From Patulibacter minatonensis DSM 18081 (GTDB taxonomy: Bacteria > Actinomycetota > Thermoleophilia > Solirubrobacterales > Solirubrobacteraceae): DNA of 63,278 bases. The position numbers and the translations under genes are program-made. Shown here piece by piece: positions 7,791 through 63,278 of this stretch (position 1 is the first letter of the stretch; every line of letters starts with the position of its first letter). The stretch lies in contig NZ_KI912613.1 in assembly GCF_000519325.1 (NCBI RefSeq), forward strand, positions 5,303,578 to 5,366,855, in the 5' to 3' direction. The notes beneath the pieces are model-generated. The model saw only the letters and a list, made by a program, of their open reading frames with translations. It had not been told where the DNA came from and did not search any database.

Positions 7791-7802
7791 CGACGCGTCT
7801 GA

Positions 7803-7890
7803 AGAACCGGGGAGTCCCAGGCGGGGGCTGAGAGGGCGCCGGGTCCGCGCCGACCCGACGACCTGATCCGGCTCATACCGGCGGAGGGAG
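7803..7890 (+). ncRNA. TPP riboswitch (THI element)
   Basis: The conserved aptamer blocks appear in order. They are CGGGGAGTCCC near 7808, GGCTGAGAGG near 7827, a variable GC-rich stem near 7837-7856, and ACCTGATCCGGCTCATACCGGCGGAGGGA at 7861-7889 (cited here as the classic CTGATC...ATACCGGCG...AGGGA block). The 3' purine block GGAGGGAG doubles as a Shine-Dalgarno sequence 4 nt before ATG 7895. Ligand binding would therefore be expected to hide the ribosome site (translational control). It controls the thiamine-precursor-type binding lipoprotein downstream. Confidence 0.95.
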
Positions 7891-7894
7891 CACG

Positions 7895-7942
7895 ATGGAA
7901 CGATCCGACGGACCGCTGAGCACGCGAGGGACCGGCCGATGA
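7895..7942 (+). CDS. Leader ORF between TPP riboswitch and binding lipoprotein
   Basis: ATG 7895 opens a 15-codon frame (MERSDGPLSTRGTGR) that ends at TGA 7940-7942. This stop overlaps the ATG of the lipoprotein gene at 7939 as ATGA. It is the start best placed for the riboswitch purine block GGAGGGAG (7883-7890). The lipoprotein also has a possible site of its own, GAGGG at 7926-7930. The leader may thus couple translation of the transporter gene to the riboswitch state. No peptide function is implied. Confidence 0.5.
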   Translation: MERSDGPLSTRGTGR

Positions 7943-57774: not shown

Positions 57775-58474
57775 CGGAGCCTCCCTTGGGGGTGTCACCG
57801 GCGTCGGACGACCCGTCGGCCTTCGGGGCCTCGGGCTTCGGGGCCCCCGTCTTCGGGGCGTCGGCCTTCGGCTCGTCCACGCTGGTGGGGAGCACCGTGG
57901 CGACGGGCTTCTGCACCGCGGAGGTCGAGGCCTCAGGCGCGGCGGGCTTCGGCGGGGCGGACGACTCGGCGCGGCGGGCGCCCGGGGTGCCGAGCGTCCG
58001 CGACGGGCCGTGCTGCGGCTCGGGCGGCTGCCTCGCCGCCGCGCCCTGCACGCTCTCGCGGATCAGCTTGGCCTCGTCGATCGCCATCGTCGGGACCGGC
58101 GGGGCGCCCTTCTTGACGAACTTCCAGGCCAGGAACCCACCGACACCGGCGAGCACGAACAGGAGGAGCGCGGTGATGAAGTAGCCCCAGAAGATCTGGT
58201 CGCCCGGGAATCCGAACGCGTACCAGAAGAAGAACGACAGGCCGTGCAGGAAGAACAGGCCGCCGAGCGCGATGAAGACGCCCGCCGCGCCGCCGACGGC
58301 GACGCCGCGGCCGATCGAGCCGACCTTCTGCGCGACCTCGGCCTTCGCGAGCTCGATCTCGTCGCGGACGATGTGCTGCGACCGCTCCGTGACGTTGGCG
58401 AGATGCTCGACGACGGACTTCAGCGAGGCCTCGCGCGCGGCGTCGTCGCGCCGCCGCTGGTCAGCGCCGCGCAA
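57764..58474 (-). CDS. Holin-superfamily-like membrane protein (DUF1469, Phage_holin_3_6 type)
   Basis: A 236-residue protein from TTG 58474. The N-terminal amphipathic part SVVEHLANVTERSQHIVRDE is followed by IELAKAEVAQKVG, which is typical of this actinobacterial family. Two membrane helices follow (about 58-80 and 95-118). A 105-residue Ala/Pro/Lys-rich tail with AP-K repeats (EPKADAPKTGAPKPEAPKAD) is unusual. The phage-holin name is only a family label; no phage gene is nearby. The start overlaps the previous gene's end. Confidence 0.82.
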   Translation of the reverse strand: MRGADQRRRDDAAREASLKSVVEHLANVTERSQHIVRDEIELAKAEVAQKVGSIGRGVAVGGAAGVFIALGGLFFLHGLSFFFWYAFGFPGDQIFWGYFITALLLFVLAGVGGFLAWKFVKKGAPPVPTMAIDEAKLIRESVQGAAARQPPEPQHGPSRTLGTPGARRAESSAPPKPAAPEASTSAVQKPVATVLPTSVDEPKADAPKTGAPKPEAPKADGSSDAGDTPKGGSDES

Positions 58475-63038: not shown

Positions 63039-63170
63039 TCACTTCCGACGGGGAGCGTGCGCGGGAACCGGTCGAGGCGGGGCGGGCGGGCGGGGCGGTC
63101 GGGGCGCCGGCCGGGCGGACGAGATCCGGCGGGGTGCGCGAGCGCACGCCGGGCCGGGGCGACCGGCGGA

Positions 63171-63213
63171 CTGGCGCGCATTGCTGCGGCGGGGGCGCAG
63201 GAACGAACGCCAG
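63171..63213. repeat. Structured 43-nt tandem repeat, copy 1
   Basis: Outer stem CTGGCG (63171-63176) with CGCCAG (63208-63213); internal loop CGCATTG / GAACGAA; inner stem CTGCG (63184-63188) with CGCAG (63196-63200); 7-nt loop GCGGGGG. Copy 2 starts 62 nt later with the same architecture. The intervening GGCCGGG-CG-CCGGC spacer is also similar to the sequence preceding copy 1. Confidence 0.75.
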
Positions 63214-63232
63214 GGCCGGGTCGGCCGGCAGG

Positions 63233-63275
63233 CCGGCGCGCATTGCTGCGGCCGGAGCGCAGGAATGAACGCCGG
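63233..63275. repeat. Structured 43-nt tandem repeat, copy 2 (array continues past window?)
   Basis: Outer stem CCGGCG (63233-63238) with CGCCGG (63270-63275); internal loop CGCATTG / GAATGAA; inner stem CTGCG (63246-63250) with CGCAG (63258-63262); loop GCCGGAG. Relative to copy 1 the outer stem has a compensated T:A to C:G change. The other differences fall in loops. The window ends 3 nt later. Confidence 0.75.
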
Positions 63276-63278
63276 CTC

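What the first reader, a model, noticed from the sequence alone, without database searches (positions are those of the whole stretch)
63110..63278. Tandem hairpin element with a compensated stem change at the right edge
Two 43-nt units, 62 nt apart, share the same two-stem architecture. The outer stem changes from CTGGCG/CGCCAG to CCGGCG/CGCCGG, a T:A to C:G covariation. The inner stem CTGCG/CGCAG and the loop CGCATTG are unchanged, and the remaining differences sit in loops (GCGGGGG vs GCCGGAG; GAACGAA vs GAATGAA). The sequence before copy 1 (ACGCCGGGCCGGGGCGACCGGC) looks like the end of a decayed earlier unit. Selection on structure is implied. It could be a REP/BIME-like mobile repeat family, an array of small structured RNAs or a protein-binding array. 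I recognise no described family.
Basis: partly seen in the sequence, partly recalled or inferred. Interest (0 to 1): 0.75.

Follow-up and report, generated by a model that had tools for sequence, protein, structure and literature searches.

The report
Dispersed tandem inverted-repeat arrays, REPIN-like
The window's right edge cuts into one of about 20 copies of a short inverted-repeat array scattered between genes of one Patulibacter species; it resembles the hairpin repeats known as REP/REPIN elements, but its genus lacks the transposase that spreads those, and the stem covariation that drew attention does not hold up.

Summary
The repeat is real. The genome (genus Patulibacter) holds 60 units at about 20 intergenic loci. 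The true unit is not the 43-nt hairpin described. It is two inverted 16-nt half-sites, CGCAGGAACGAACGCC and its complement GGCGTTCGTTCCTGCG, around a 20-26-nt spacer. Units repeat head to tail with a linker of exactly 7 nt (32 of 32), period ~61 bp. Half-sites are conserved between loci (83%), spacer interiors unrelated (50%, shuffled 49%). Over 38 junctions and 45 units the stems show no compensatory change. No unit was found in 7 congeneric species, 231 other genomes of the order, or by exact pattern in 84,980 species. Sister families in the same genome share the ~61-bp geometry with other half-sites. The closest known kind is the REPIN (two inverted REPs around a highly diverse spacer), but the RAYT domain is absent from all 8 genus genomes and the GTAG/CGTC tag is missing. 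Best reading: a RAYT-less, REPIN-like dispersed repeat family whose half-sites are recognised by an unidentified DNA-binding or DNA-processing protein.

The parts
63135..63188 (+). Unit 1 (decayed): left half-site TGCGCGAGCGCACGCC (63135-63150), 22-nt spacer (63151-63172), right half-site GGCGCGCATTGCTGCG (63173-63188)
   Evidence: Half-site parsing; covariance-model hit at G000:5366712-5366765, E 9.4e-5
63189..63195 (.).
   Evidence: Linkers are exactly 7 nt in 32 of 32 adjacent unit pairs
63196..63250 (+). Unit 2: left half-site CGCAGGAACGAACGCC (63196-63211), 23-nt spacer (63212-63234), right half-site GGCGCGCATTGCTGCG (63235-63250)
   Evidence: Covariance-model hit at G000:5366773-5366827, E 1.0e-11 (a model member, so matched partly by construction); parsing
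63251..63257 (.).
63258..63278 (+). Start of unit 3: left half-site CGCAGGAATGAACGCC (63258-63273) and the first 5 nt of its spacer; cut off by a 100-nt run of N just after the window
   Evidence: N run located
63171..63213 (.).
   Evidence: folds at -21.4 kcal/mol, z -2.4
63233..63275 (.).
   Evidence: folds at -26.6 kcal/mol, z -3.6

Best explanation
This is one copy of a dispersed family of REPIN-like elements. Each element is two inverted 16-nt half-sites around a short spacer whose sequence does not matter, so it can form a hairpin as single-stranded DNA. It has spread to about 20 intergenic loci and been amplified locally into tandem arrays, typically of three units. What is recognised is the half-site; spacer and linker act as spacing only. 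I infer that an unidentified DNA-binding or DNA-processing protein, not a RAYT, binds the half-sites and moves or maintains the elements. Shown: unit anatomy, dispersal, intergenic position, array boundaries, half-site conservation against free spacers, restriction to one species among those searched, absence of the RAYT domain. Inferred: mobility, hairpin formation in vivo, and the existence of the recognising protein.
For: 60 units at about 20 loci in the genome. In the 17 loci examined in detail all arrays are intergenic, between functionally unrelated genes. Unit boundaries: arrays start and end at half-sites; right flanks score at background where a partner half-site would be (mean 4.5 of 16, background 4.9), and a lone unit exists at 58286. 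Half-sites 83% identical between loci, spacer interiors 50% against 49% shuffled. In adjacent units of an array, half-sites change less than spacers (7.2% against 18.7%, Fisher 4e-9) and linkers change most (36%) yet always keep 7 nt. [quoted passage not shown] tandem REPIN clusters are described (PMC3116915). At the locus 2523541-2523932 the flanking genes are syntenic in congener G037, which has no array there.
Against: No RAYT (PF01797) in the genome or genus and no other mobiliser identified. No target-site duplication is apparent at array ends (flanks, by inspection). Published tandem REPIN clusters repeat nearly identical units with flanks (PMC3116915), whereas spacers here often differ between neighbours. 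The half-site has no evident internal palindrome, unlike a REP. The 7-nt linker is held more strictly than simple amplification predicts. The between-loci half-site identity is partly a selection effect, because units were found by their half-sites.
Confidence: 0.55

Rival explanations
1. Arrays of double-stranded binding sites for a host DNA-binding protein (nucleoid or chromosome-organising factor, or a transcription factor). Half-sites are protein contacts; the fixed 7-nt linker and the ~61-bp period (roughly 6 helical turns) place bound proteins in register.
For: Linker length invariant (32/32) while linker sequence is the least conserved part; the half-site extends to flanking R/S and Y positions; no covariation, as expected for duplex recognition; half-sites conserved against spacers within arrays; the ~61-bp period recurs in families with other half-sites.
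Against: Flanking genes share no function and arrays show no fixed relation to promoters or gene ends. None found in any congener, including G019 whose LepA is 99% identical, which is odd for a conserved host function.
Confidence: 0.28
2. Core sites of a tyrosine recombinase: inverted ~16-bp arms flanking a 7-bp overlap, in tandem, letting the arrays expand and contract or serve as integration sites.
For: Arm-7-arm geometry with a variable central sequence resembles recombinase core sites (knowledge of the families). The genome has 6 Phage_integrase-domain genes.
Against: None of the 6 lies next to an array (nearest is about 18 kb away, comparing). Arrays end in lone half-sites and a single unit exists without a junction. 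There is nothing of gene length between sites to excise or invert.
Confidence: 0.07
3. Tandem array of small structured RNAs or RNA-level hairpins (processing or termination signals).
For: Some units and junctions fold far better than shuffles (z -5.6 to -8.3 for three sequences from other loci).
Against: No compensatory change in 45 units or 38 junctions; pairing below all 500 and below 492 of 500 shuffles. Arrays lie in codirectional, convergent and divergent gaps alike. The window stretch as a whole folds little better than shuffles (z -1.1). No Rfam match.
Confidence: 0.08
4. Degenerate CRISPR-like arrays (palindromic repeat of 39 nt, unique spacers of ~22 nt).
For: Conserved inverted repeats regularly interspaced with unique spacers.
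Against: The 'repeat' contains a freely varying 7-nt centre, arrays begin and end with half a repeat, some neighbouring spacers are plain duplicates, there are about 20 dispersed small arrays, and spacers match about 10% of the own genome no better than shuffles. cas genes were not searched for.
Confidence: 0.02

Closest known systems
REPIN (REP doublet forming hairpins; PMC3116915, PMC8049555)
   Same: Two inverted conserved ~16-mers around a short, highly diverse spacer; dispersed in intergenic DNA; several families per genome; tandem clusters occur.
   Different: No RAYT in the genome or genus; the half-site is not itself an imperfect palindrome; arrays with fixed 7-nt linkers are the usual form and a single unit is rare.
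BIME / REP (PU) elements, and GTAG- and CGTC-tagged REPs (PMC3733652)
   Same: Intergenic palindromic repeats in tandem groups; CGTC REPs also lack a dedicated transposase.
   Different: No GTAG or CGTC tag in the half-site consensus; period about 61 bp; found here in an actinobacterial genus (the word 'Actinobacteria' does not occur in that survey's main text).
MITEs (miniature inverted-repeat transposable elements)
   Same: Terminal inverted repeats around non-coding DNA, multi-copy.
   Different: Interior is not shared between copies, no target-site duplication seen, no parent insertion sequence found.

Membership tests
REPIN / REP | Two inverted conserved sequences separated by a short diverse spacer | tested here: met
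   16-nt arms 83% identical between loci, spacers 20-26 nt with unrelated interiors
REPIN / REP | Multiple copies in intergenic DNA | tested here: met
   60 units; all arrays intergenic in the 17 loci examined
REPIN / REP | Associated RAYT (Y1_Tnp, PF01797) transposase in the genome | tested here: not met
   none in this genome or in the other 7 of the genus; controls positive; 29 of 232 genomes of the order have a match
REPIN / REP | Each REP is an imperfect palindrome tagged with GTAG or CGTC | tested here: not met
   Half-site consensus CGCAGGAAYGMRCGCC with flanking R-S contains no tag and, by inspection, no internal hairpin
REPIN / REP | Evidence of transposition (copy-number change, excision) | not testable with these tools
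   Needs strains of the same species or deep sequencing; absence of the array from a syntenic gap in G037 is suggestive only
Structured RNA family | Compensatory base-pair changes in the stem | tested here: not met
Structured RNA family | Match to a described family | tested here: not met
   the only gathering-level hit in the window is a TPP riboswitch elsewhere; only sub-threshold hits
MITE | Target-site duplication at element ends | tested here: not met
   7-nt flanks left and right of arrays listed do not match (inspection; old duplications could have drifted)
CRISPR | Identical repeats | tested here: not met
   The centre of the repeat varies freely, and arrays end in half-repeats

The most novel reading that the evidence does not exclude
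A class of palindromic elements defined by geometry (two inverted half-sites, a 7-nt linker, ~61-bp period) rather than by sequence: several families with unrelated half-sites share this geometry within one genome, and other tandem-hairpin families with a ~59-60-bp period occur in another Patulibacter. The sequence families turn over rapidly between close species under the action of a protein that is not a RAYT.
Probability: 0.27. Interest if true: 0.65.

Novelty: new variant of a known kind. Interest (0 to 1): 0.42.

Why it matters
REPIN-like elements are thought to depend on RAYT transposases. A genus with several such families but no RAYT, and with a shared strict geometry, is a place to look for another way of spreading or maintaining short palindromic repeats. 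It also warns that a single compensated pair in two copies is weak evidence for a conserved RNA: the same family at 38 junctions shows none.

Tried and rejected
Structured RNA: rejected on covariation and Rfam. RAYT-driven REP: domain absent. Wider occurrence: the exact unit pattern gave 0 hits in genome contigs and viral contigs and 0 in 231 other genomes of the order; those collection scans may leave out near-identical records. Spacers as captured DNA: best matches to 563 kb of the own genome are no better than shuffles (only about a tenth of the genome). Regulon idea: flanking genes unrelated. Asymmetric units (one A-type, one B-type half): suggestive only, Fisher p 0.06-0.07. A conserved array position between species: downstream of one shared gene G052 carries an array of another family, but the other-side gene differs and arrays are common in G052, so I treat it as possibly chance. 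The first lepA alignment used wrongly oriented loci and was redone. 13-mer enrichment was swamped by GC-rich coding repeats.

Full report
Setting. The window is C1:5303578-5366855 of a 5.52-Mb single-scaffold genome with N gaps. Named relatives of one of its proteins are mostly Patulibacter, so the genus is Patulibacter, by inference. The finding lies at the right edge, upstream of a CoA-transferase-like gene; beyond a 100-nt run of N and some 280 bases of sequence a ParA-like gene follows.

The observation. The two 43-nt copies exist as stated, and the pattern is not expected by chance in the window. Searching the genome with them gives many further places. A covariance model built from 45 units finds 60 units (119 strand hits, since the unit is nearly palindromic) at about 20 loci, and none in the seven other species of the genus. 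The model was built from units of this genome, so most of these match by construction; the new ones were a lone unit at 58286, a three-unit array at 4758375 and a few partial or decayed units. The first look scored at most 150 candidates per genome, and several arrays run into N gaps, so 60 is a lower bound.

Anatomy. Reading half-sites along each locus, the order is left half-site CGCAGGAACGAACGCC, spacer of 20-26 nt (22 or 23 in 44 of 51 units), right half-site GGCGTTCGTTCCTGCG, then a linker, then the next unit. The linker is 7 nt in all 32 adjacent pairs. Arrays begin with a left and end with a right half-site. At 11 array right ends the place where a partner would sit scores 4.5 of 16 against a background of 4.9; at 14 left ends it scores 5.9 against 4.9, the excess coming mainly from three places (L024, L031, L033) that look like decayed further units. 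A partial copy at 2566257 starts inside a spacer, so truncation occurs.

Conservation. Between loci, half-sites are 83% identical, spacer interiors 50% (shuffled 49%) and linkers 41%. The loci were found through their half-sites, so that first figure is partly a consequence of selection; the comparison within arrays is less exposed to it. Among 22 adjacent pairs with recognisable spacers, half-sites differ at 7.2% of positions, spacers at 18.7%, linkers at 36% (half against spacer, Fisher 4e-9). With a stricter spacer cut-off of 0.8 identity the difference is no longer significant (10 pairs, p 0.17).

Structure. Several units and junctions can fold into very stable hairpins, others hardly better than shuffles. 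Across 45 units the stem forms standard pairs in 81.9% of cells, below all 500 shuffles (mean 83.5%); across 38 junctions 79.2%, below 492 of 500 (mean 80.6%). Selection for base pairing is not supported; the small deficit could reflect avoidance of perfect palindromes, an inference.

Context. The 17 loci studied in detail are all intergenic; by the simple gene caller used, gaps are codirectional in 11, convergent in 3 and divergent in 3 (counted by me; the window locus was read by hand because the caller over-extended a gene there). Twenty flanking proteins were scanned with Pfam; those with hits have unrelated functions and none is a transposase. At the locus 2523541-2523932 both flanking genes are syntenic in G037, whose gap of similar size holds other sequence and no array.

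Related families. Next to this family's arrays in the same genome lie others with the same layout and other half-sites. One is a 116-bp element at about seven loci; another has GGCAGCGATTCGTGCG-type half-sites, 7-nt linkers and a 60-61-bp period at four loci. A scan for tandem inverted repeats finds 10 loci in 500 kb of this genome, 19 in 500 kb of congener G052 and 3 in 340 kb of G037, against 1, 0 and 0 in locally shuffled sequence. In G052 the families seen have other sequences and periods, among them ~59-60 bp. The scan accepts a wide range of loops and periods, so these counts do not by themselves show one class.

What it is. [quoted passage not shown] It fails two tests of membership: no RAYT domain in any of 8 genus genomes and no GTAG or CGTC tag. 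I therefore call it REPIN-like, not a REPIN. The free but length-fixed linker is the feature that this reading explains least, and it keeps the binding-array rival alive.

Noticed in passing
window 7798-7906 (+): TPP riboswitch, the only Rfam match at gathering score in the window.
   Followed up: no
L060:2711-2826 (G000:2730010-2730125) and about six further loci: A second family: 116-bp element of two units with half-sites like CTGCAGGAACCGACA, conserved arms and unrelated ~10-nt interiors; two loci carry a variant with CGGGA-type outer arms.
   Followed up: partly
L064:2742-2903 (G000:2523541-2523702), L148, L149: A third family with GGCAGCGATTCGTGCG-type half-sites, 7-nt linkers and 60-61-bp period; its arrays start with the right-hand type of half-site, unlike the main family.
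   Followed up: partly
G052 C1, L095-L114: Tandem hairpin arrays of other sequences (for example GTTCCGGCTGAGG...CCTCAGCCGGAAC, period about 59), one of them downstream of a gene whose homologue in this genome also borders an array.
   Followed up: partly
L021, L023, L025, L036: 100-nt runs of N directly beside arrays, consistent with the assembly breaking at them; unit counts are lower bounds.
   Followed up: no
several families in G000 and G052: Many half-sites contain GGAAC or its complement; may be chance, not tested.
   Followed up: no
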